The notes: a model not told the origin generated them from the letters alone. Shown: positions 6,406-34,481, numbered from the stretch's first letter. The stretch: DNA of 40,028 nt from Deltaproteobacteria bacterium RIFCSPHIGHO2_02_FULL_40_28 (GCA_001798135.1 MGRJ01000010.1:1-40028); one strand, 5' to 3'. Numbers and translations: made by a program.

Positions 6406-6745
6406 ACGTGGCAAGATTGTCCTTGTTCCATTTCCATTTACTGATCTCTCTTCCTCTAAAATTAGGCCTGCATTGATCGTGTCAGATCCAAAATATAGTG
6501 ACGAAGATATCAGCGTTGTCTTCATTACCTCAAAACTCTCCCAACGCGCCCAGTCAACAGATTATCATATTAAAACAACCCATACTGATTTTGGACAAAC
6601 TGGTCTCAAAACAGCTTCAATAGTGAGATGCAATAAAATTGCTACCCTCGATAAAAAAACTGTCCTTGGTGAAATTGGGTTTTTATCTCGAAACATCCAA
6701 AAAAAAATTGACCAAAAAATAAAATTATATTTTGGAATAAAATAA
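6398..6745 (+). CDS. MazF/PemK-like endoribonuclease toxin
   Basis: A 115-aa PemK/MazF family protein. The hallmark start GKIVLVPFPFTDLSSSKIRPALIVS contains the conserved Pro-Phe-Pro-F-T-D and K-x-RPALI motifs. The central SVVFITSKL strand and late ASIVRCNKIATLDK (Arg plus the strand near the RNA-binding face) are also typical. The family cleaves mRNA. The length is normal and nothing is missing. It overlaps the Phd-like antitoxin gene by 8 bp. Confidence 0.87.
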   Translation: MFERGKIVLVPFPFTDLSSSKIRPALIVSDPKYSDEDISVVFITSKLSQRAQSTDYHIKTTHTDFGQTGLKTASIVRCNKIATLDKKTVLGEIGFLSRNIQKKIDQKIKLYFGIK

Positions 6746-6807
6746 CACCCCCTCGCCCCTACCATTTAACGCACTGCATCATGAAAAACTGTCATCCTGA
6801 GCGCTAG

Positions 6808-6841
6808 CGAAGGATCTACACAACCTTTTCTCAAACCTGCA
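6808..6841 (+). repeat. 34-bp direct repeat right of phd-mazF
   Basis: Partner of 6051-6084 with one mismatch. It is preceded by a short GTCATCCTGAGCGCTAGCGAAGGAT palindrome in place of the longer one in the left copy. Confidence 0.8.
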
Positions 6842-6860
6842 CCCACAAAATCTACTTGAT

Positions 6861-6890
6861 ATAATTATAATATAATTATATTATAATTAT
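6861..6890 (+). promoter_or_regulatory. AT-only inverted repeat at the brnTA start
   Basis: A 30-bp stretch made only of A and T in which ATAATTAT motifs repeat in both orientations, running into the start codon at 6889. It includes TATAAT-like -10 sequences. This is a probable promoter plus autoregulatory operator for the BrnT/BrnA pair, whose antitoxin binds DNA in known systems. Confidence 0.5.
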
Positions 6891-7176
6891 GATGATTGAG
6901 TTCTTCTGGGATGAAGCTAAGAATAAGGCTAATCAAAAAAAGCATGGTGTTTCATTTGAAGAAGCTCAATCGGTTTTTGCTGATGAGAAAGCAAGATTGC
7001 TTCACGATGTGGATCATTCCGCGGAAGAAGATCGGTTTATTCTGCTCGGCATAAGTATCAAGCTTAAGCTTCTTGTTGTTTGTCATTGTTATCGTGAAAA
7101 AGATCATTTGATCCGTATCATTTCTGCCCGTAAAGCCACATTAAAGGAACAAAAACAATATGAGGAGTTTTTATGA
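6889..7176 (+). CDS. brnT: BrnT family toxin
   Basis: A 95-aa BrnT-like ribonuclease toxin (RelE-like fold). The signature FFWDEAKNKANQKKHGVSFEEA near the start, the central DRFILLGIS and LLVVCHCYRE strands and the ending IRIISARKATLKEQKQYE are all characteristic. Two consecutive ATG codons (6889, 6892) could serve as start. It overlaps brnA by 4 bp (ATGA). In BrnTA the toxin gene precedes the antitoxin gene, as here. Confidence 0.88.
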   Translation: MMIEFFWDEAKNKANQKKHGVSFEEAQSVFADEKARLLHDVDHSAEEDRFILLGISIKLKLLVVCHCYREKDHLIRIISARKATLKEQKQYEEFL

Positions 7177-18504: not shown

Positions 18505-21189
18505 ATGAAAAAAATTTTCCTATTCCTATTTTTGTTTTTTTCAAGCTCCCAGGTTTTAGCAAACGTGGAATATCAAATTACTTCTATTGAGTGCAAACCT
18601 TTTGTTGTTCATCTTGATTCTAAAAAAGTCTGTGATCTTTGCCCTCTTAAAAAAGGAGATACCGTTACCATCGAAAAAATGAATGAGGTTAAAAATACTC
18701 TTTATGGAACAAGAATGTTTGAATCTGTGCAATTATCCATCACAGGTCAAAAGACAGCTGCCAGACTTCTGTATGAACCTATCGAGGCCAGGCTTATTCG
18801 CAAGGTAGAAGTAAAAGGCAATTATCCCTACTTGGCTAAAAAAGTTCTGCGTTTAAGCCTGTTGCAACCAGGAGATGCCTATCTGGAAGAATTGATAGAC
18901 GAAAGTGAAAAACGCATTCAAACTTTTTTTGAAAAAAATGGATATCTTGGAACTGAAGTTGAAATTTTACCAGAGCTTGAAAAAGAAAACTATGTAGCCA
19001 ATATTTCAATTATAATCTCAAAGGGCAAAACCTATCGCTTAGGTGATGCAACCTTTATTGGAAATCAATATTACACTTCATCTGAACTTAAAAATAAGCT
19101 TTTTAGTTTTACCCATTTTAAAGCTGTAAAAATCAAAAGACAATTGAAGGATATCGAAGAAGATTATGCAAAAAACGGCTTTGTAAGGGCACGCGTGAAA
19201 CTTCTTGATTCCAAAATCAATTTCCAGAAAAAACAAATTGATATTGTAGTTGAAGTTCAAGAACGTAAAAAATTAAAAATTGATTTTACAGGACACTCCC
19301 TTTTCGAATCTGCAACCCTGAGACAACAAACAGCATTTTATGCTGAAAAAGGTTACGATAGTTTTTCTGTCGAAAGAAGCCTCGATCAACTTAAAACCTT
19401 CTATAAGATCAATGGTTTTTTAAATTCCAATGTTATCGCTAAAATGACGGAGAATGAAAATGAGGTCTTGGTTACTTTTTATGTCAAAGAAGGTCCACGC
19501 ACAAGATTAAAACAAATTCAATTTATTGGTTTAAAAGAAATAGATGAGGGAGATTTAAAAAAATCTTTAAATAACGAAACTCATTCCCTCACAAGAAAAG
19601 GTATTTTAAAAGAAGAATTAATTCCCATCGATTTAGAAAACATGTCTACTTTTTTCAATTACCATGGCTTCTTTGATGCCAAGGTTGAAAAATGGGAAAT
19701 GCAATACAACCGTTTTCTTGATCAAGCTACTCTGATTGTTTTGATTCATGAGGGGGCTTTCTACACCCTGGAAGATATAGCCTTTAACGGCCAAACTATT
19801 CTTGAAGGTAAACAACTTCGAAAATTAGCCGATTTAAAAAAAGATCATCACTACCAAGAACAAGACATACGGAAGGCAGAAGATAAAATTTTAAATGAAT
19901 ATTTGGATCGTGGTTATGCCTATGCTACCATTCAACATCATGCCATTTTAGATAGAGAAAATCATAAAGTTTCTCTTACTTTTCAAATTAACGAAGGTCC
20001 TATCGTCAAAGTAAAAAATATTATTATCTCAGGAGATTATAAAACAGATCAATCTACTATCTTGAATGCCTTACGTTTTAAAAGTGGAGACGTTTATCGA
20101 TACAAAAAAATACTTGGAGCTTCCTTAAATCTTAAACGATTGGGTATTTTTGATTATGTGCTTCTAACCCCTGTTGGTATTGAAGAACAAAAAGATAAAG
20201 TAGACATTGCCATTAAACTTTTAGAGAAAAAAACTTTCGTGATGGATGTGCAAGCAGGTTTTGATAGCGACAAACTGGGCTCTGGCCAAATTGTAATAAA
20301 AAAGCATAATATTTTTGGCAAAGCTAAAGAAATCCAACTAAAAACAATTGGAGGTTTTGAATTAAATCGAGGGGAATTAACCCTTTCCTCTCCTCGTATC
20401 TTTGGAGCCAATTGGAATCTCATTAATCAATTTTTTATTCAATACGAAGACGACGAAAATTTTAATGCTTCTTCCTATGGAGGCTCCGTAGGTGTTTTAA
20501 AACAGTTTGGACCTATTTGGACCTTACTTATGAAATCTGAAATAACCCACTTCAATATCTATGAAAGTGAAAGTAATAGCGATACTCTGGATGAAAATTT
20601 ATTTGACTCAACCTTTTCTGAAGTAACTATCTCCGCTGCCATGGATAAACGAGACAATTTTGCAGATCCTGGCAAAGGTTTTTATATTTTTGCATCGAGT
20701 GAATTCGATACCGATTTTGCTGATATTACAAATAATTTTATTATCAATCGCTTCAACACATCTCACTATCTTTCGTTTTTAAACCGTTTTACCCTGGTTA
20801 ATAATCTTCGCTTTAATAAACTTTCTGAAGTGAATAACGATGCGAGAATACCTGTGCAAAAACTTTTTTTTATGGGAGGCAATGATACAGTAAGAGGCTT
20901 TGACGAAGATGCCATTAATAGCTCTGGTGGAACAACTTCATTTATCTATAATGCTGAGCTCCATTACAGACTTTTTAGTTCGTTTAAGTTGGCAGGTTTT
21001 TTTGATACTGGGAGCCTCACTAATTCCTTAGGAGAAATTTCAATGGATACTTTTAGAGAATCAGCTGGTTTTGGAATTCGTTACTTTACACCCGTTGGCC
21101 CCATTAGACTTGACTATGGATTTATTTTAAATAAACAACCAGGAGAATCAGGGCAAAGATTTCATTTTTCATTTGGATATTTCTTTTAA
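18505..21189 (+). CDS. Omp85 family (TamA/BamA-like) protein with ~7 POTRA domains
   Basis: An 894-aa outer-membrane protein. The signal peptide is ~1-19 (KKIFLFLFLFFSSSQVLA). By repeated pattern (strand, helices ending in -FxxxGY/F, strand with V-E-G/E-R-K) I count about seven POTRA-like domains between ~22 and ~573. A 16-strand-type barrel follows from ~574, with the Omp85 hallmark VRGF at ~795 and the ending GIRYFTPVGPIRLDYGFIL with terminal Phe. Three cysteines lie in the first POTRA (CKPF, CDLC). The position one base after tamB favours a TamA-like role, but TamA normally has three POTRAs and BamA five, so assignment to either is open. A separate BamA elsewhere in the genome would support TamA. 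Confidence 0.88.
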   Translation: MKKIFLFLFLFFSSSQVLANVEYQITSIECKPFVVHLDSKKVCDLCPLKKGDTVTIEKMNEVKNTLYGTRMFESVQLSITGQKTAARLLYEPIEARLIRKVEVKGNYPYLAKKVLRLSLLQPGDAYLEELIDESEKRIQTFFEKNGYLGTEVEILPELEKENYVANISIIISKGKTYRLGDATFIGNQYYTSSELKNKLFSFTHFKAVKIKRQLKDIEEDYAKNGFVRARVKLLDSKINFQKKQIDIVVEVQERKKLKIDFTGHSLFESATLRQQTAFYAEKGYDSFSVERSLDQLKTFYKINGFLNSNVIAKMTENENEVLVTFYVKEGPRTRLKQIQFIGLKEIDEGDLKKSLNNETHSLTRKGILKEELIPIDLENMSTFFNYHGFFDAKVEKWEMQYNRFLDQATLIVLIHEGAFYTLEDIAFNGQTILEGKQLRKLADLKKDHHYQEQDIRKAEDKILNEYLDRGYAYATIQHHAILDRENHKVSLTFQINEGPIVKVKNIIISGDYKTDQSTILNALRFKSGDVYRYKKILGASLNLKRLGIFDYVLLTPVGIEEQKDKVDIAIKLLEKKTFVMDVQAGFDSDKLGSGQIVIKKHNIFGKAKEIQLKTIGGFELNRGELTLSSPRIFGANWNLINQFFIQYEDDENFNASSYGGSVGVLKQFGPIWTLLMKSEITHFNIYESESNSDTLDENLFDSTFSEVTISAAMDKRDNFADPGKGFYIFASSEFDTDFADITNNFIINRFNTSHYLSFLNRFTLVNNLRFNKLSEVNNDARIPVQKLFFMGGNDTVRGFDEDAINSSGGTTSFIYNAELHYRLFSSFKLAGFFDTGSLTNSLGEISMDTFRESAGFGIRYFTPVGPIRLDYGFILNKQPGESGQRFHFSFGYFF

Positions 21190-21287
21190 GGGACGGAGGG
21201 AGTGTTTTTTGAGGAGCGAGGACTGTCTGACGAGCCTTTAAGGCGAGGAGTTCCGCAGCGACGAAAGAAATACTCCCTCCGTCCCTT
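21187..21287 (+). repeat. Core-and-arms palindromic element E2
   Basis: The left arm begins at the TAA stop codon of the Omp85 gene (TAAGGGACGGAGGGAGT) and is complementary to 21268-21287. The core GAGGACTGTCTGACGAGC ... GCGAGGAGTTCCGCAG is shared with E1 and E3. The terminal hairpin is GCCTTTAAGGC here. No T-run follows it. Confidence 0.85.
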
Positions 21288-21297
21288 ACACAAAACT

Positions 21298-26286: not shown

Positions 26287-26345
26287 GTAGGGGCAACCCC
26301 CCGTGGTTGCCCTCATAACGGGCGGCCACAGGGGGCCGCCCCTAC
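26287..26345. repeat. GTAGGGGC/GCCCCTAC palindromic element, copy 4
   Basis: Perfect GTAGGGGC and GCCCCTAC ends, with inner arms GGGCAACC...GGTTGCCC and GGGCGGCC...GGCCGCCC. Its right end overlaps the stop codon of the CDP-alcohol phosphatidyltransferase gene: on the - strand the TAG of GTAGGGGC is the stop. Confidence 0.85.
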
Positions 26346-27121
26346 ATTTTCTTATCAAGTTCATGCATGACAAAAAACATGCGCTCGAAAGCTGTAACCC
26401 AAGTCATGATGGCTACAAAAGATAAAGGCAAGAGAAAAAGATTTTCTGGAGTCAAAAGAGGATTGAAGCGAAATAAAAACCATGAAAAAAGTGGGGCAAA
26501 AATAGAACCCACACCCAGGTAAACAATGCGTTCGGGTCTTTGCATGGCTCCGCCTGTGTAGAAAATTCCAGAAGACTCTCCCTTGGCTCTCGTATAGCTT
26601 ACGAGCAAAGATCCCAAAAATGCCATCAGAACAACCCACAAAACCCAGCTATTGCGAAAATAATAAATAAGCCCCATAAAGGTTAAGCCTTCTGATACCC
26701 GGTCCATCACCGAATCATAATAAGCACCCGATGCTGTTGTCTTGTTGGTTAGCCTCGCTACACGTCCATCAAACATATCAAAGGTGGCAGCAAAAATCAT
26801 GAACCATCCCCCTATGCCAAAGTATCCCTGGGTAAAACTAAATCCAGAAACAGCACTCACCATAACACCCAAGGTAGTCAAGGCATTGGGGGTAAAGCCA
26901 AATTTTACAAAAAAACGAATGAAGGGATCGGTAATCCAAAACCAATAGGCTTTCATCCAACGATTAAGAAGTTTGGAAGAGTAACGGCTTTCTACCTCAG
27001 GAAGGGGTGGAAGCCGATGATAAACGGGACGAAAAATAAGAACCGTACACAACAAAAAAATGTTGAAGACTAGAAGAGGAATAAAGCTCACCCAAGGTGA
27101 ATTCCCATTAAAAGCACTCAT
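26342..27121 (-). CDS. CDP-alcohol phosphatidyltransferase family protein
   Basis: A 259-aa membrane enzyme of the CDP-OH phosphatidyltransferase superfamily, which swaps CMP for an alcohol head group on CDP-diacylglycerol-type lipids. The full catalytic motif D-G-x2-A-R-x8-G-x3-D-x3-D is present (D118, G119, A122, R123, G132, D136, D140). About six hydrophobic segments are visible, plus an extra N-terminal helix (~12-30). The acceptor (glycerol-3-phosphate, inositol phosphate, serine or other) cannot be told from the sequence. It starts 5 bp after the radical SAM gene, so the two are almost certainly translated from one mRNA. A palindromic repeat provides its stop codon. Confidence 0.88.
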   Translation of the reverse strand: MSAFNGNSPWVSFIPLLVFNIFLLCTVLIFRPVYHRLPPLPEVESRYSSKLLNRWMKAYWFWITDPFIRFFVKFGFTPNALTTLGVMVSAVSGFSFTQGYFGIGGWFMIFAATFDMFDGRVARLTNKTTASGAYYDSVMDRVSEGLTFMGLIYYFRNSWVLWVVLMAFLGSLLVSYTRAKGESSGIFYTGGAMQRPERIVYLGVGSIFAPLFSWFLFRFNPLLTPENLFLLPLSFVAIMTWVTAFERMFFVMHELDKKM

Positions 27122-27126
27122 GGCAT

Positions 27127-29025
27127 TTACACGTTAAAACCAACAACTTCTTTTGAACCACAACTTTCATGAGCTTCCCTGGCCTTGGCTGAAGCATCAT
27201 AATGAGGCACATCCGGCACAACAAGTGTGTTTTCAAAGGTGTTAAGGTCTACTGGTTTATTATTGGCATAAACCACATGACGTCCATGGGCCCGGTACCA
27301 TTCTCCCACTGATGCATTTTTATAGAAGTGCTCGATGATTTGTCTCCAACCAACGCCTGTATTGTAAGCACAAAAGGAAATTTCACCTTCTTGAGTACCA
27401 TAGGGAATAATACATCTTTCGGTTCTGCGAAAATCATAGTTCCACAGATCCTGAAACCACATCCCGGCTACAAACATCAAAAGCCAGGTATCTTTGCGGC
27501 GCTTTGCACCTTCGCCATAGTTTCCACCAAACGAACCGCCTGTTTGCTTGTCAAATTTTTGAAAAAGATGTTTCAAGTAAAAACCTTTGGGAACAGAATT
27601 TGGATTATAGTTTCGAAGAAGTGCCAAAACCATTTGAAACTTAGAAAAACGAGGTTTTCTGGCCATATCATTAATGAGAGCAACATCTTTTAAAAAACGA
27701 TCAATACGAAGAGCTTCACCCAAAGCTACTTTTTCCTTGGTTTGTTTATTAACAAAAAAAGCAGTGCCTACTCCACAATTGGGATGACAACCGCATTTTA
27801 ATGAGCCCCATTCTGAATCAAGTCCCTTCATCAAATCATTAAAATCTGAAAACACACTGATGGCTGATAAAGGAAACCAATCTCTCAAAGGATCTGTAAA
27901 GCCAGTTTGAGCTTTAAAACCATGAGCCAAGTGAGAAAGAGTGTAACGTTTTTCCATTCTTTCTTCGTTCGAGATATCTTCATCCCGGCCTGTAAATGAA
28001 ACAGGTTGAAAGGAAATAAAACTGATTTTATCGCTATTTTTAATCGCAAAATCAAAAATAGCTCCTACTTGGTGATCGTTAACTGTATTCACCAGGGTAA
28101 CCACCAACACAACAACAACTCCTGCGTGATAAAGATTTTCGATGGCACGCAGTTTAATATCAAAAAGGTTTCCAATTTTACGATGTTCATGGTTTTCGTT
28201 ACCCACTCCATCAAATTGAAGATAGGCAATACGCAAACCTGCATCATAAGCTTGTTTTGCAAACTCAGTATCCTGGGCAAAACGAATTCCATTGGTGGCA
28301 CATTGAACTGAAAAGTAACCAACTTCTTTGGCATACTTAATGGCATCAATAAAAATGGGAGAAATCGTTGGTTCGCCACCTGAAAACTGAACAGAGAGTT
28401 GGCGCTTGGGCTTAATGGAAACTGCATTATTGAGAATTTGTTTTACCTCTTGCATTTCCAACTCGTGCACATAACCAACCTGGTTGGCATCCATAAAACA
28501 GGGCTCACACATCATGTTGCAACGATTGGTGAGATCAACAGTTAAAACCGCCCCTCTTCCATATTTCACTGAAGAAGTGCCATGATTTCGAAGTGTACGA
28601 TCGGGTGCAAAGTAATCGCTGCCTGGATAAAGATCTTCCATCCTTTGTAAAAACTTGGGATCAATGGCCATCACATCTTCAAAGTGGCCATGCTTTACAC
28701 AATCTTTCACCATCATAATTTTTCCATCTTTTTCTAAAATGGTTGCCTTGATTTCACCAGGCTTGCCTTCTCTTAAAATTTCTTTATCAATTTTACCCGA
28801 AAGAATATCTGCACGTACTTCTTTAACGCATTCGGGACAAAGTGAATCGGTTTCTCTGGGCCAACCCAATGTAGGTTTTACTTTTTCATGACTTTTTAGC
28901 ATGGGACGATCGGCCCACTTGGGCGTTACTGTTTTTCCTTCAGGAAAAACACGATTAAAAGATTGAATTACAGGCCAAAGAAGCTTGGCCGTTCTCACTA
29001 AGGTTTTATCAATGAAATGACTCAT
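27127..29025 (-). CDS. Radical SAM enzyme resembling tetraether lipid synthase (Tes-like)
   Basis: A 632-aa protein. An N-terminal CPEC (C63, C66) and KDCVKHG (C109) suggest a metal-binding domain. The radical SAM cluster motif is CNMMCEPC (C169, C173, C176), followed by FSGGEPT. The C-terminal third has Cys-rich GSLKCGCHPNCGVGTAFF and DLWNYDFRRTERCIIPYGTQEGEISFCAYN. This layout matches the archaeal MJ0619/Tes family, which joins lipid tails by carbon-carbon bonds, and its bacterial homologues. ATG 29025 has a GGAGG nine bases upstream; an in-frame TTG at 29046 overlaps that site and is less likely. The phosphatidyltransferase gene follows after 5 bp and a GbsR-like gene lies upstream, supporting a lipid role. 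The assignment to Tes itself, rather than a related family, is inference. Confidence 0.65.
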   Translation of the reverse strand: MSHFIDKTLVRTAKLLWPVIQSFNRVFPEGKTVTPKWADRPMLKSHEKVKPTLGWPRETDSLCPECVKEVRADILSGKIDKEILREGKPGEIKATILEKDGKIMMVKDCVKHGHFEDVMAIDPKFLQRMEDLYPGSDYFAPDRTLRNHGTSSVKYGRGAVLTVDLTNRCNMMCEPCFMDANQVGYVHELEMQEVKQILNNAVSIKPKRQLSVQFSGGEPTISPIFIDAIKYAKEVGYFSVQCATNGIRFAQDTEFAKQAYDAGLRIAYLQFDGVGNENHEHRKIGNLFDIKLRAIENLYHAGVVVVLVVTLVNTVNDHQVGAIFDFAIKNSDKISFISFQPVSFTGRDEDISNEERMEKRYTLSHLAHGFKAQTGFTDPLRDWFPLSAISVFSDFNDLMKGLDSEWGSLKCGCHPNCGVGTAFFVNKQTKEKVALGEALRIDRFLKDVALINDMARKPRFSKFQMVLALLRNYNPNSVPKGFYLKHLFQKFDKQTGGSFGGNYGEGAKRRKDTWLLMFVAGMWFQDLWNYDFRRTERCIIPYGTQEGEISFCAYNTGVGWRQIIEHFYKNASVGEWYRAHGRHVVYANNKPVDLNTFENTLVVPDVPHYDASAKAREAHESCGSKEVVGFNV

Positions 29026-29044
29026 TTTTTTATTCCTCCATACC

Positions 29045-29068
29045 AACGTTTACAAAGTTTTAAACGTT
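29045..29068 (-). promoter_or_regulatory. Inverted repeat upstream of the radical SAM gene
   Basis: AACGTTT (29045-29051) and AAACGTT (29062-29068) form a perfect 7+7 palindrome with a 10-base spacer, 20-43 bases upstream of the start codon. It is a candidate operator in the leader or downstream of the start site. Confidence 0.5.
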
Positions 29069-29130
29069 CTAAATACATGAATTTAAAAGACTTTTTTAAG
29101 TAAGTTCCTTTTAAAAGATAGGGCCTGATC

Positions 29131-29149
29131 TGTCAAACAAAATTTGACA
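29131..29149 (-). promoter_or_regulatory. Palindrome overlapping a perfect -35 of the radical SAM gene
   Basis: TGTCAAA-CAAAA-TTTGACA is a perfect 7+7 inverted repeat. On the - strand it contains TTGACA, followed after 17 bp by TAAAAG as a weak -10. A regulator bound here would block the -35; the nearby GbsR-like protein is the obvious candidate. Confidence 0.5.
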
Positions 29150-29177
29150 ACAAAATTTGATACTCTCTAGGTTGTGA

Positions 29178-29270
29178 GGCCAGGGTGGAGTGTTTCTTGA
29201 GGAGCGAGGACTGTCTGACGAGCAACAGCGAGGAGTTCCGCAGGGACGAAAGAAATACTCCACCCTGGCT
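29178..29270 (+). repeat. Core-and-arms palindromic element E3
   Basis: Arms at 29179-29196 and 29252-29269 are complementary with one mismatch. The core is shared with E1 and E2, with GC-AACA-GC as the terminal hairpin. It lies between the GbsR-like gene and the radical SAM promoter, in the orientation opposite to those genes. Confidence 0.85.
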
Positions 29271-29288
29271 CTAGAAATGATTTTTATT

Positions 29289-29864
29289 TTACGATCTTTT
29301 CAAAATGGGTTTTAAAAGAGAGGTATCAAGGTTTGTTCCTGCGTAGATGGCTTCGATCAAAACATTAGCACCTTCGTAAAAGGAACGTACAGCATCAAGG
29401 CGTGCTTTCATAAATCTCACCTTGGTTTCAGTATCGGGATCAAGGTTTTTATCATCAATTTCTTTTACCAAGGAAGAAGAATCCAAAATCATATCGAGGC
29501 TATCATGAATATTACGTCTGATTTTTTCAAAAAATTCCTGGATAATTTTACTAGGGACTGCAGCTACAGCTACATAATAATCTTTGCGTGTTCCCTTCAC
29601 CCATACTTTTTTAACCAATTGGTAATCTTCTAAAATACGAATGTTAATACTTACATTTCCCTTAGAAACTCCAAGTTCGGTTACAATATCATCGAGGGAG
29701 AGTGCTTCGGGTGACAGGTAGAGCAAAGCATAAATTTGTCCACACACGCGATTTAAAATTCCCAAAAGCGAAACTGCAATACGACCCGACCCTTCAATAA
29801 AATTAGCTTGAGCCTCAAGAAGTTTTTCGGATGAATTTTTTTTTATTTTTAATTTTGTATCCAT
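29289..29864 (-). CDS. GbsR/MarR-like transcriptional regulator
   Basis: A 191-aa winged-helix protein. NRVCGQIYALLYLSPEALSLDDIVTELGVSKGNVSINIRILEDYQLVKKVWVKGTRKDYY reads as a GbsR-type N-terminal domain: the YLSPE-LSLDDI-ELGVSKG-S-N-R-LE pattern and the VWVKGTRKDYY wing are close to the family signature. The C-terminal half is helical and probably dimerises or binds ligand. Known GbsR proteins repress osmoprotectant genes, but the family is broader. Its ATG overlaps the end of the gamma-carbonic-anhydrase-like gene by 16 bp. The ligand is unknown; the neighbouring palindromes at 29045-29149 are plausible targets. Confidence 0.85.
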   Translation of the reverse strand: MDTKLKIKKNSSEKLLEAQANFIEGSGRIAVSLLGILNRVCGQIYALLYLSPEALSLDDIVTELGVSKGNVSINIRILEDYQLVKKVWVKGTRKDYYVAVAAVPSKIIQEFFEKIRRNIHDSLDMILDSSSLVKEIDDKNLDPDTETKVRFMKARLDAVRSFYEGANVLIEAIYAGTNLDTSLLKPILKRS

Positions 29865-30385
29865 TTTTCTTTTTGATAATTTTTAGCTAATTCACAATAA
29901 TGAGCTGCCGAGGCTCTTAAAAATTGAAGCTCCTCCTCACTTAAGGGACGTTTAACACGAGCAGGGCTTCCCAAAGCTAGTGATTTGCCGGGAATAACAG
30001 TACCAGGGCTCACAAGGGAGCCAGCTCCAATAAAGCAATCATCTTCGATAACAGCATTATCGAGAATAATAGAACCCATTCCAATAAGGCAACGATTTCC
30101 AATTTGACAACCATGCACAACCACACGATGTCCAATGGTAACAAAGTCTCCAATGATGATAGGAGCCGGTTTTGCAGATTCTTTTGTTGTAACATGCACC
30201 ATGGTTAAATCCTGAATATTTGTTTTACTGCCTATGCGAATAGAATGTACATCTCCACGAATAACTGCCCCAAACCAAACAGAACAATCCTCACCTAAAA
30301 CCACATCACCAATCACCATGGCATTGGGAGCAATAAAAGTGCCCTTGCCGATTTTTGGACTGATATCTTTAAAACTGGTAATCAT
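29849..30385 (-). CDS. Gamma-carbonic-anhydrase-like hexapeptide-repeat protein
   Basis: A 178-aa left-handed beta-helix protein of the YrdA/CaiE type. The zinc ligands H64 (MVHV), H86 (IGHR) and H91 (VVHG) and the structural residues R44, D46, Q58 and D59 are all present, so metal binding is likely. Carbonic anhydrase activity has been shown for some members only. ATG 30385 (MITSFKDISP) is preferred; the in-frame GTG at 30406 would extend into a palindromic repeat. The 3' end overlaps the GbsR-like gene by 16 bp, an unusually long coupling overlap. Confidence 0.88.
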   Translation of the reverse strand: MITSFKDISPKIGKGTFIAPNAMVIGDVVLGEDCSVWFGAVIRGDVHSIRIGSKTNIQDLTMVHVTTKESAKPAPIIIGDFVTIGHRVVVHGCQIGNRCLIGMGSIILDNAVIEDDCFIGAGSLVSPGTVIPGKSLALGSPARVKRPLSEEELQFLRASAAHYCELAKNYQKEKWIQN

Positions 30386-30392
30386 ACATAAT

Positions 30393-30475
30393 GCGGGTCC
30401 TGTCACTGGGGAAACCTTTTTAATGCTCGCGCTCGTTACCGCTGCGCGTTAAAAAGGTTTCCCCGTGCCACCCGC
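30393..30475. repeat. Long palindrome with a 25-base loop between bfn and the gamma-CA gene
   Basis: Perfect 16-bp arms GGGGAAACCTTTTTAA (30408-30423) and TTAAAAAGGTTTCCCC (30449-30464), plus outer arms GCGGGT (30393-30398) and ACCCGC (30470-30475). The loop is GC-rich (GCTCGCGCTCGTTACCGCTG). The core differs from E1-E3, but the style (locus-specific arms around a GC-rich core) is the same. It could attenuate or process the - strand transcript. Confidence 0.85.
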
Positions 30476-32798: not shown

Positions 32799-33728
32799 TT
32801 AGGCAGTGCCACTCTCTTTGCCACCCTTCACATCATTTTTTACTTCAACACCAACTTTGGCTGCTCCTTTTGCAGTTTCACCAGCAGTCATGGCAGCTTG
32901 TGCGTCTTGACCACGCTTACTAGATGCAGCGGTACTTAAAACACCACCGGCAATTCCTCCAGCGGCTTGGGTATAGGTAATACCTTTTTGAACTTTTTTA
33001 ACTGTTTTGGCGTTTTTAGCAAGTTTGGCTGCTTTTTCAGGACTAACTTCCTTTGCTTTATCAGCACTTTTAGCACCTTTGGTTGCATCAGCAACTTTTG
33101 TAGCGCCACCAGCATCTTCGGCGCCTTTAGCTCCCTTGGCAACGGCATCGGCCCCTTCGGCACCATCTGCCACAGCTTCGGCACCTTCAGCTCCTTGAGT
33201 TACTGTACCAGCACCCTCGGCACCATCAGCTACAGTACTTACTCCCTGAACTCCTTCGGTAACAGCATCAGCACCTTGGGCTCCTTCGGCAACTGTTCCT
33301 GCAGCTTCTGCACCTTCGGCTACAGTAGCAGCTGTTTCAGCACCTTCAGCCACGGTTTCAGCTGTTTCAGCAACTTTAGCCACGGTTTCAGCTGTTTCAG
33401 CAACTTCAACTACGGTTTCAGTAGTTTCAGCAACTTTAACAGCAGTGTCAGCACCTTTAATTGCAGTTGAAGTGCCTGTAGTTGCAGCACTTGCACCCGG
33501 CACCCAACAAAGGGCTAAAGAAGCTACATCAAGCGCCAAACAAGCACCTTGTGTTACATCGCCTGCAGTATCCAATTCGTTGGCAGCATTTTCATTTCCA
33601 GCCTCCCAGTCTTTATCCATTTGTACTTTTTGTTCGGCAGCACTTACCGTCACATCACGCTCATCTCTGGGTTGATCAACAGCAGTTTGATCACCACTAA
33701 TTGTTCTAATTGTTCCTGAATCGGCCAT
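32799..33728 (-). CDS. Decapeptide-repeat Ala/Val/Glu-rich protein (309 aa)
   Basis: No family recognised. A polar N-terminus (~1-58) is followed by a short hydrophobic stretch (~61-82, CLALDVASLALCW). Residues 91-200 consist of eleven contiguous 10-residue repeats with consensus E-(T/G)-A-x-(T/A)-V-A-(E/D)-G-A, plus a degenerate twelfth. Then come a Lys-rich part and a Gly/Ala hydrophobic segment (YTQAAGGIAGGVLSTAAS). There is no signal peptide. The ATG at 33728 is preceded by AAGGAGTTTTT. It lies 23 bp after the bilobed-hydrophobic gene, in the same direction, so both are probably read from the promoter at 34482-34510. Confidence 0.75.
   Translation of the reverse strand: MADSGTIRTISGDQTAVDQPRDERDVTVSAAEQKVQMDKDWEAGNENAANELDTAGDVTQGACLALDVASLALCWVPGASAATTGTSTAIKGADTAVKVAETTETVVEVAETAETVAKVAETAETVAEGAETAATVAEGAEAAGTVAEGAQGADAVTEGVQGVSTVADGAEGAGTVTQGAEGAEAVADGAEGADAVAKGAKGAEDAGGATKVADATKGAKSADKAKEVSPEKAAKLAKNAKTVKKVQKGITYTQAAGGIAGGVLSTAASSKRGQDAQAAMTAGETAKGAAKVGVEVKNDVKGGKESGTA
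33129..33458 (-). repeat. 30-bp coding tandem repeat (11 units)
   Basis: DNA counterpart of the decapeptide repeats (residues 91-200 of the 309-aa protein). Units vary at third positions and at several codons, so this is an old repeat under coding constraint rather than a fresh slippage array. It creates long spurious open frames on the other strand. Confidence 0.85.
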
Positions 33729-33751: not shown

Positions 33752-34465
33752 TTAAGAATTTAAATCTGACTCCACACTCACCACCCCCGCATCAGAAGGG
33801 GAACTATTTGCATCTTCGGGAGGGATTCCTTCTTCAGCTCCGCTGCCATTTTGTTCGGGCTGTAAAAGTTGTTCCTTCATAAAGGCATCATTTTGATCTT
33901 CTCCTTCAAAAACAGCCCGTCTTCCTGCGCTATTCTGTTCTTCTACTTCCCTTTGAGCCTCTTCTGCCTTAGTTCCCTTATCAATTTGATCCCCTCCAGC
34001 GATACCACAAATTGCGCTTATAATACCTAAAACAGCGGCGAGAGGGGGAATTTCAATGGCAATAATGGCTGCAATACCAAAACCTACTGCTACTCCTGTT
34101 AGGGCATAACCAGCATCTTTATTTCCAGATCCCGCAGCTTTAATACGATCTTCGGCACCTGCGTCTTCATCAGCCAATGTTTTTTCCTTGGCATCCACAG
34201 AACGAGTATCAGTCATCGTGGCTGCAATTTCATTTCCATCAACTTGCTCTATCCCCGTATCTTCGCTAGAATCTCCTCGAAGAGAATCAAGCTCGTCCCC
34301 ACCAGCCGTAGAAGCTGTACCTGCACTTAAGGCCTGATTTCTGGTAGCACGACCACTGGAACTAGAAGTGTAAGTAGAAGTACTTTGATTGGGGCTAGAC
34401 CCTTCAGAAGCACTACCAGTAGAACTCGTTCCATTTGTTGTTGTGCTATTTGCAGTTTCTACCAT
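33752..34465 (-). CDS. Ser/Thr-rich protein with bilobed hydrophobic hairpin (237 aa)
   Basis: Residues 1-~56 are mostly Ser, Thr, Gly and Asn. Residues ~56-117 are acidic and charged. Residues ~120-158 form two hydrophobic helices split by a turn (AGYALTGVAVGFGIAAIIAIEIPPLAAVLGIISAICGIAGG), and the tail is acidic. There is no Sec signal. This pattern resembles membrane-inserting substrates of specialised secretion systems (chlamydial Inc proteins, type III translocators) in composition only; no homology is claimed. I chose ATG 34465 over the in-frame GTG at 34477 because GAGGAGATTT just upstream is its ribosome binding site. Confidence 0.7.
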   Translation of the reverse strand: MVETANSTTTNGTSSTGSASEGSSPNQSTSTYTSSSSGRATRNQALSAGTASTAGGDELDSLRGDSSEDTGIEQVDGNEIAATMTDTRSVDAKEKTLADEDAGAEDRIKAAGSGNKDAGYALTGVAVGFGIAAIIAIEIPPLAAVLGIISAICGIAGGDQIDKGTKAEEAQREVEEQNSAGRRAVFEGEDQNDAFMKEQLLQPEQNGSGAEEGIPPEDANSSPSDAGVVSVESDLNS

Positions 34466-34481
34466 AAATCTCCTCACCCTT

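What the first reader, a model, noticed from the sequence alone, without database searches (positions are those of the whole stretch)
26342..30385. Tes-like radical SAM enzyme coupled to a CDP-alcohol phosphatidyltransferase and near a GbsR-like regulator
Seen: radical SAM CNMMCEPC plus N-terminal CPEC and C-terminal Cys-rich blocks in the order I know from MJ0619/Tes proteins. The phosphatidyltransferase has a perfect DG-AR-G-D-D motif and starts 5 bp later. A regulator gene lies upstream, and palindromes flank the -35. Established: Tes joins lipid tails to make membrane-spanning tetraethers in archaea, and bacterial homologues exist. Inference: this bacterium may make membrane-spanning or cross-linked lipids under dedicated control.
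Basis: partly seen in the sequence, partly recalled or inferred. Interest (0 to 1): 0.72.

Follow-up and report, generated by a model that had tools for sequence, protein, structure and literature searches.

The report
Bacterial lipid-tail coupling enzyme operon
This little-known bacterium carries a regulated gene set for an enzyme closely resembling the archaeal one that welds two membrane lipids tail to tail, so it probably makes lipids that span the whole membrane, and a conserved DNA switch shared by related bacteria suggests the set is deliberately controlled.

Summary
Window 27127-29025 (-) encodes a 632-aa radical SAM protein whose only full-length structural match is archaeal tetraether synthase GDGT-MAS/Tes (7TOM; Foldseek E 2.8e-35). 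The rubredoxin site, radical-SAM cluster, C-terminal cluster, Met439 and Tyr459 are kept, but the N-terminal auxiliary [4Fe-4S] cluster is missing. The same loss marks a 43-member clade in at least four bacterial phyla, on a long, fully supported branch outside canonical Tes and (in the members scored) below NCBIfam's Tes cut-off. So it is Tes-like, but not Tes by that definition.

A single-copy, phosphatidylinositol-phosphate-synthase-like gene starts 5 bp downstream and adjoins the enzyme gene in 17 of 23 loci of the phylum, in both orientations. A box, TTTAGAAYGTTTWRAA(N5)TAAAC, precedes the enzyme gene in 20 of 20 readable loci, is nearly absent elsewhere in these genomes, and also precedes canonical Tes genes in four sister genomes and a distant copy of the phosphatidyltransferase gene. 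The GbsR-like regulator co-occurs with the enzyme (23 of 28 genomes versus 1 of 18).

Best reading: a dedicated, switchable bacterial tail-coupling (membrane-spanning lipid) system. Its activity is untested, and ether linkage is doubtful here. New variant of a known kind.

The parts
27127..29025 (-). Tes-like radical SAM enzyme, 632 aa; rubredoxin site C63/C66/C109/H112, radical-SAM C169/C173/C176, C-terminal cluster C417/C538/C552 with M522, catalytic-pocket Y542; no N-terminal auxiliary cluster
   Evidence: 7TOL E 2e-60; Tes NF045702 322 bits, below cut-off; AF2 pLDDT 84.8 and Foldseek 7TOM E 2.8e-35; ligand mapping
26342..27121 (-). CDP-alcohol phosphatidyltransferase, 259 aa, phosphatidylinositol-phosphate-synthase-like (RPER motif)
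   Evidence: PF01066; PIPS structures 6WM5/6H53 E 3e-21 and 9e-21; adjacent in 17 of 23 own-phylum loci
29289..29864 (-). GbsR/CudC-type winged-helix regulator, 191 aa
   Evidence: NF047500 E 3e-21, below cut-off; 1KU9 E 6.7e-18; co-occurs with Tes in 23 of 28 genomes versus 1 of 18
29047..29075 (-). Conserved box TATTTAGAACGTTTAAAACTTTGTAAACG, presumed operator, 22 bases upstream of the enzyme start codon
   Evidence: 20 of 20 readable own-phylum loci; exact 16-mer and perfect 26-mer nearly confined to this promoter; controls
29131..29149 (.).
   Evidence: no sigma-70-type promoter found

Best explanation
The operon encodes a bacterial membrane-spanning-lipid system. The Tes-like enzyme makes a 5'-deoxyadenosyl radical, takes H from the end of a saturated acyl or alkyl tail, holds the tail carbon on its C-terminal [4Fe-4S] cluster, and joins it to the tail of a second lipid (C-C bond between two sp3 carbons). 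It does so without the surface N-terminal auxiliary cluster of archaeal Tes. The downstream enzyme makes a phospholipid head group of the same membrane, most likely inositol phosphate. A GbsR-type winged-helix regulator binds the box just upstream of the start codon and switches the operon. Shown by computation: homology, fold, conserved catalytic ligands, missing N-cluster, conserved linkage, conserved box, regulator co-occurrence. Inferred: the reaction, the substrate (probably ordinary, ester-linked bacterial lipids), the head group, and binding of the regulator to the box.
For: Full-length match to GDGT-MAS and to nothing else (7TOL E 2e-60; 7TOM TM 0.86 of target against 0.51 for MoaA). 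Radical-SAM and C-terminal cluster ligands, Met439, Tyr459 and the QPVSFTGR SAM-contact motif conserved through the clade (roles from PMC9433317). A phospholipid-making gene adjoins in 17 of 23 loci in two orientations. The box lies before this enzyme in 20 loci, before canonical Tes in four sister genomes, and before an unlinked phosphatidyltransferase gene in G010. The regulator tracks Tes of either type (p 2.7e-7). GDGT-MAS binds ordinary E. coli phospholipids and its head-group pocket is unspecific and could take inositol (PMC9433317).
Against: No member of this clade has a known activity, and bacterial Tes homologues were still described as unconfirmed in 2025 (PMC11868695). The Tes model cut-off is not reached, the branch to canonical Tes is very long (3.36), and a metal centre is missing, so the reaction may have changed. 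The lipid tunnel was not measured. The phosphatidyltransferase also occurs in genomes without Tes (43 of 46). The box is not seen outside the phylum.
Confidence: 0.68

Rival explanations
1. The enzyme acts on lipid tails but does another radical reaction, for example ring closure between two tails of one lipid, an H-shaped cross-bridge like Gms, or desaturation.
For: Long branch, lost N-terminal cluster and an added clade-specific Cys411 next to the C-terminal cluster. MJ0619 itself also makes macrocyclic archaeol (PMC9433317). L015 carries this type and canonical Tes 2.4 kb apart, which suggests the two need not be redundant.
Against: The C-terminal cluster ligands, Met439 and Tyr459 are unchanged. 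The same box stands before canonical Tes in sister genomes, suggesting the same role. Gms has a SPASM-type architecture (PMC11186832).
Confidence: 0.17
2. The phosphatidyltransferase is a general housekeeping inositol-lipid gene that merely lies next to the enzyme gene; the two share no pathway beyond being membrane enzymes.
For: One copy in 43 of 46 genomes of the phylum, with or without Tes. Neighbouring gene order is also partly kept for unrelated genes, such as enolase or uvrB.
Against: Linkage survives orientation change (11 co-directional, 6 convergent). The regulator gene sits beside the phosphatidyltransferase when Tes is elsewhere. The box precedes the unlinked gene in G010 and lies at the start of the convergent one in G011.
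Confidence: 0.35
3. It is not a lipid enzyme but a peptide or cofactor maturase of the wider TrsS/SPASM-like radical SAM group.
For: Distant similarity to TrsS (219 bits) and many maturases; the N-terminal ribbon is named for the old pterin methylase annotation.
Against: Fold matches GDGT-MAS along the whole length. The neighbour is a lipid enzyme, and no conserved precursor-peptide gene was found beside it. The pterin role was not corroborated for MJ0619 (PMC9433317).
Confidence: 0.07

Closest known systems
Archaeal tetraether synthase Tes / GDGT-MAS (MJ0619; PDB 7TOL, 7TOM; NCBIfam NF045702)
   Same: Whole-length fold, rubredoxin site, radical-SAM cluster, C-terminal cluster with labile Met, Tyr459, SAM-contact residues.
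   Different: 30% identity; 322 bits against a cut-off of 450; no [Fe4S4]N ligands; added Cys411; longer N- and C-terminal parts; bacterial, with a phosphatidyltransferase partner.
Bacterial Tes homologues of Zeng et al. 2022 (Acidobacteria, Proteobacteria; including Koribacter and Solibacter)
   Same: Probably the same broad set: Tes-like proteins in Acidobacteria and Deltaproteobacteria, proposed for brGDGTs (PMC8941075).
   Different: The best hits there (40-42% identity) fit the canonical type. The window protein is of the other, N-cluster-less type. The weaker E. aggregans homologue (32%) fits this type or TrsS.
Mss, bacterial membrane-spanning lipid synthase (Thermotogota, Bacillota)
   Same: Same proposed job, joining fatty tails; reported to share the Tes catalytic architecture (PMC13274423).
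   Different: No Mss sequence could be obtained here, so relationship is untested; Mss and Tes are treated as separate sets in the surveys read.
Prokaryotic phosphatidylinositol-phosphate synthase (PIPS; 6WM5, 6H53, 5D92)
   Same: CDP-alcohol signature, RPER motif holding the inositol-phosphate Arg, later invariant Arg247, Ser175.
   Different: 113-153 bits, below the NCBIfam cut-offs; Lys135 equivalent is Arg; N-terminal membrane extension.
GbsR/CudC family regulators
   Same: Winged-helix similarity over most of the length.
   Different: Below the CudC cut-off (76 against 218 bits) and linked to membrane lipid genes, not to choline genes.

Membership tests
Tes / GDGT-MAS (NF045702) | Score above the curated cut-off of 450 bits | tested here: not met
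   322 bits; five clade members from other phyla 292-340; canonical-type bacterial members 512-581
Tes / GDGT-MAS | Rubredoxin-type Fe site CxxC...CxxH | tested here: met
   C63, C66, C109, H112
Tes / GDGT-MAS | N-terminal auxiliary [4Fe-4S] cluster (C73, C77, C80, His) | tested here: not met
   T144, H148, S151, K154; the Cys ligands are absent in all 42 alignable clade members
Tes / GDGT-MAS | Radical-SAM CX3CX2C | tested here: met
   C169, C173, C176 invariant
Tes / GDGT-MAS | C-terminal cluster ligands with labile Met439, and Tyr459 | tested here: met
   C417, C538, C552, M522, Y542 in all 43
Tes / GDGT-MAS | Full-length fold including the lipid-binding C-terminal domain | tested here: met
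   7TOM/7TOL TM 0.86-0.87 of target, 545 columns
Tes / GDGT-MAS | Hydrophobic tunnel that takes two lipid tails | not testable with these tools
   Model coordinates not available for cavity mapping
Tes / GDGT-MAS | Tail-to-tail sp3 C-C coupling activity | not testable with these tools
   Needs expression and lipid analysis
TrsS (NF045646) | Score above the curated cut-off of 490 bits | tested here: not met
   219 bits; TrsS-like proteins fall far outside the clade in the tree
Gms (GMGT synthase) | SPASM domain with two auxiliary clusters and beta-hairpin insert | tested here: inconclusive
   No SPASM match in Pfam and best fold is GDGT-MAS; no Gms sequence compared
Mss | Sequence relationship to Thermotoga/Clostridia Mss | not tested
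Phosphatidylinositol-phosphate synthase | CDP-alcohol signature and the two inositol-phosphate Arg (R155, R195 of MtPIPS) | tested here: inconclusive
   Signature and RPER (R198) met; invariant R247 is a likely but unaligned R195 equivalent
Phosphatidylinositol-phosphate synthase | Score above NCBIfam cut-off (NF045883, 170 bits) | tested here: not met
   113 bits
GbsR/CudC regulator | Score above CudC cut-off of 218 bits | tested here: not met
   76 bits, E 3e-21

The most novel reading that the evidence does not exclude
The [Fe4S4]N-less clade is a separate bacterial tail-coupling synthase, parallel to canonical Tes. It joins ester-linked acyl tails of inositol phospholipids and is switched by a dedicated regulator through a box almost confined to this one operon; in one phylum it shares that regulatory slot with canonical Tes.
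Probability: 0.33. Interest if true: 0.77.

Novelty: new variant of a known kind. Interest (0 to 1): 0.62.

Why it matters
Bacterial membrane-spanning lipids (brGDGTs) underlie widely used palaeotemperature proxies, yet which bacteria make them and with which enzyme is unsettled. This work picks out a multi-phylum enzyme clade with a clear sequence signature (X-H-S in place of the Cys73/77/80 ligands; CGCHPNC) and, in one candidate phylum, a conserved box, a regulator and a head-group gene that tie it to canonical Tes. The operon is compact and easy to express, so the function can be tested directly. It also suggests that the N-terminal cluster of Tes, whose role is unknown, may be dispensable.

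Tried and rejected
Greedy longest-ORF gene calling failed in GC-rich loci and was replaced by codon-usage calling. Neighbours outside the phylum (NnrS, aromatic amino-acid lyase, FabA-like, alcohol dehydrogenase, B12-rSAM) show no shared partner and were not used. Other recurrent neighbours inside the phylum (Mrr-type nuclease, enolase, GreA, HAD) look like plain synteny. The palindrome at TTGACA is not conserved. PlsA/Ger-type DUF2229 does not track Tes (p 0.14). The second exact box match in the own genome lies inside a QueA-like coding gene, scores only 13.5 and is taken as chance. Gms was set aside on architecture. Papers held do not include Sahonero-Canavesi 2022.

Full report
WHAT IS THERE. 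The window is a 40-kb contig (C10) of a 2.16-Mb, 31-contig genome rated 100% complete. On the minus strand lie, in order of transcription, a hexapeptide gamma-carbonic-anhydrase-like gene (29849-30385), a GbsR/CudC-type regulator (29289-29864), the radical SAM gene (27127-29025, 632 aa from ATG), and a CDP-alcohol phosphatidyltransferase (26342-27121) that begins 5 bp after the rSAM stop. uvrB and uvrC follow.

THE ENZYME. By sequence the only strong match in the PDB is GDGT-MAS/Tes of M. jannaschii (7TOL, E 2e-60 over residues 99-587 of P0001; next 5.6e-07). NCBIfam's Tes model gives 322 bits, under its cut-off of 450, and TrsS 219 bits, under its cut-off of 490. The AlphaFold2 model from 27 window and locus sequences (pLDDT 84.8, pTM 0.88) matches 7TOM and 7TOL over 545 columns (TM 0.86-0.87 of the target; next MoaA 0.51). 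The C-terminal domain that binds lipids in GDGT-MAS is therefore present in the fold. I could not measure the tunnel.

METAL SITES. GDGT-MAS has four: a rubredoxin-type Fe (C9, C12, C33, H36), [Fe4S4]N (C73, C77, C80 and a His), the radical-SAM cluster, and [Fe4S4]C with labile Met439; Tyr459 is strictly conserved in archaeal homologues (PMC9433317). On the window protein these become C63/C66/C109/H112, then T144/H148/S151/K154 (cluster ligands missing), C169/C173/C176, and C417/C538/C552 with M522 and Y542. The [Fe4S4]N cysteines are absent in all 42 clade members that align there (pattern X-H-S), while the radical-SAM and C-terminal ligands are kept in all that align. Which Cys bind [Fe4S4]C is my reading of conservation, not stated in the passages read. 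A further cysteine, C411 in CGCHPNC, is nearly invariant in the clade and absent from MJ0619 and from the two canonical bacterial Tes shown.

RELATIVES AND TREE. One scan of GTDB genomes gave 26 loci, titled Acidobacteria, Myxococcales/Polyangiaceae, Deltaproteobacteria, Schekmanbacteria and one 'Nitrospira'. Within it 29 of 46 genomes match: 23 with this type, 5 with a type about 37% identical, and one weak hit. In the tree the 43 proteins of this type form one group at 100/100 on a branch of 3.36 changes, outside canonical Tes; the own-phylum members form one subgroup at 96/96. The program warns of long branches, so the exact sister relation is unsure. Canonical-type members tested (L015 second copy, L102, L104) score 512-581 bits with the Tes model, and the six aligned keep the [Fe4S4]N cysteines; five members of this clade from other phyla score 292-340.

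NEIGHBOURHOOD. The phosphatidyltransferase is the next gene in 17 of 23 own-phylum loci, co-directional in 11 and convergent in 6, so the link survives rearrangement. It is, however, a one-per-genome gene found in 43 of 46 genomes, Tes or no Tes: a general lipid enzyme that has become tied to this system. Its nearest solved relatives are phosphatidylinositol-phosphate synthases. It has the CDP-AP signature, the RPER motif holding one inositol-phosphate Arg (R155 of MtPIPS, PMC4634129), and an invariant later Arg, R247. None of the other five transferases recovered by motif in this genome has RPER. The genome has an inositol-phosphate synthase. Lloyd et al. note that the head-group pocket of GDGT-MAS could take inositol.

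CONTROL. Upstream of the rSAM gene sits a box, window 29047-29075, TATTTAGAACGTTTAAAACTTTGTAAACG. A like box occurs in 20 of 20 own-phylum loci of this type whose upstream DNA is held (the L088 copy is weak, 19.1 bits), though the surrounding intergenic DNA is not conserved. The exact 16-mer TTTAGAAYGTTTWRAA has 21 matches in 20 of 46 genomes: 16 upstream of the rSAM gene, 2 at phosphatidyltransferase genes, 3 elsewhere; the reversed control pattern gave 4 in all. With the longer 26-mer the only perfect site in the own genome is this one; its other eight matches all have three mismatches, against four for the control pattern. Of 265 other upstream regions scored, the only two at 18.9 bits or more belong to genes divergent from the rSAM gene that share its promoter region.

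TWO TELLING PLACEMENTS OF THE BOX. First, in G010 the rSAM and phosphatidyltransferase genes lie on different contigs and both carry the box; in G011 an exact box lies at the start of the convergent phosphatidyltransferase gene, overlapping its likely start. Second, in G005, G008, G009 and G022, which have canonical Tes instead, that gene carries the box (30.6, 18.9, 19.0 and 20.5 bits; 0 of 2000 shuffles each), whereas G023, in which no regulator was found, shows none. I read this as two Tes types in the same regulatory slot. No box was seen in the Acidobacteriota or Myxococcota loci.

REGULATOR. Homologues of the window's regulator occur in 23 of 28 genomes with either Tes type and in 1 of 18 without (Fisher p 2.7e-7, not corrected for shared ancestry). 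Where it is not beside Tes it is often beside the phosphatidyltransferase (G005, G006, G008, G009, G022, G025, G036). In G045 no regulator was found and no box was seen at the locus; only a broken fragment of the rSAM gene remains, next to an intact phosphatidyltransferase gene. That is what joint loss of one system would leave. Binding of the regulator to the box is inferred; two genomes (G011, G034) have the box but no detected regulator.

PRODUCT. A DUF2229 protein, which I use from memory as a proxy for PlsA/Ger-type ester-to-ether enzymes, was not found in the own genome but is present in its four order-mates that have this enzyme. The proxy is loose, since it also rings in Lactococcus. 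An ester-linked spanning lipid is therefore at least as likely here as a tetraether. Bacteria are known to make such tetraesters (PMC13274423).

KNOWN OR NEW. Zeng et al. reported 456 bacterial Tes homologues and proposed a role in brGDGTs (PMC8941075); a 2025 study notes that this is still unconfirmed (PMC11868695), and Solibacter has two homologues (PMC10087280). The single homologue reported in the brGDGT producer Edaphobacter aggregans is 32% identical to archaeal Tes at E 4e-61. That lies within the range of this clade (28-35%) and outside that of canonical Tes (37-42%), although TrsS-type proteins fall there too and the reference sequence differs. In the papers read I found no mention of the missing N-terminal cluster, the box, the regulator or the phosphatidyltransferase link; the library holds open-licence papers only, and Mss could not be compared.

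VERDICT. The most likely function is lipid-tail coupling (0.68) under dedicated control (strong computational support, binding untested).

Noticed in passing
L178 3889-6216, L179 5627-7945, L191 4376-6649: In several genomes of the phylum the phosphatidylinositol-phosphate-synthase-like protein is fused to a PF01663 phosphodiesterase/phosphatase-superfamily domain (757-775 aa). It is a candidate for the unidentified phosphatase that turns PIP into PI.
   Followed up: partly
L186 about 6708-6923: G045 carries a broken remnant of the Tes-like gene beside an intact phosphatidyltransferase gene; no regulator homologue was found in that genome and no box at the locus.
   Followed up: partly
L015 9983-12136 and 14491-16149: A Terriglobia genome has this enzyme type and a canonical Tes about 2.4 kb apart, which may explain the two Tes homologues reported in Solibacter.
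   Followed up: partly
L027 8276-9595, L028 7659-9116, L029 13680-14978: In three Acidobacteria a B12-binding radical SAM protein (DUF4070) lies close to the Tes-like gene; a possible lipid-tail methylase or ring-forming enzyme.
   Followed up: no
window 29179-29269, 30408-30464, 21180-21295: Long intergenic hairpins with 19-31-nt arms (84-95% complementary). One lies between the regulator stop codon and the Tes-like promoter and folds at -41 kcal/mol.
   Followed up: no
window 32799-33728 and 33752-34477 (-): Two adjacent proteins of 309 and 241 aa with no Pfam or NCBIfam match.
   Followed up: no
L021 / L083: A contig titled 'Nitrospira sp.' (SBBF01000092.1) has the same length as a contig of a genome placed in the window's own order, so the record title is probably wrong.
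   Followed up: partly
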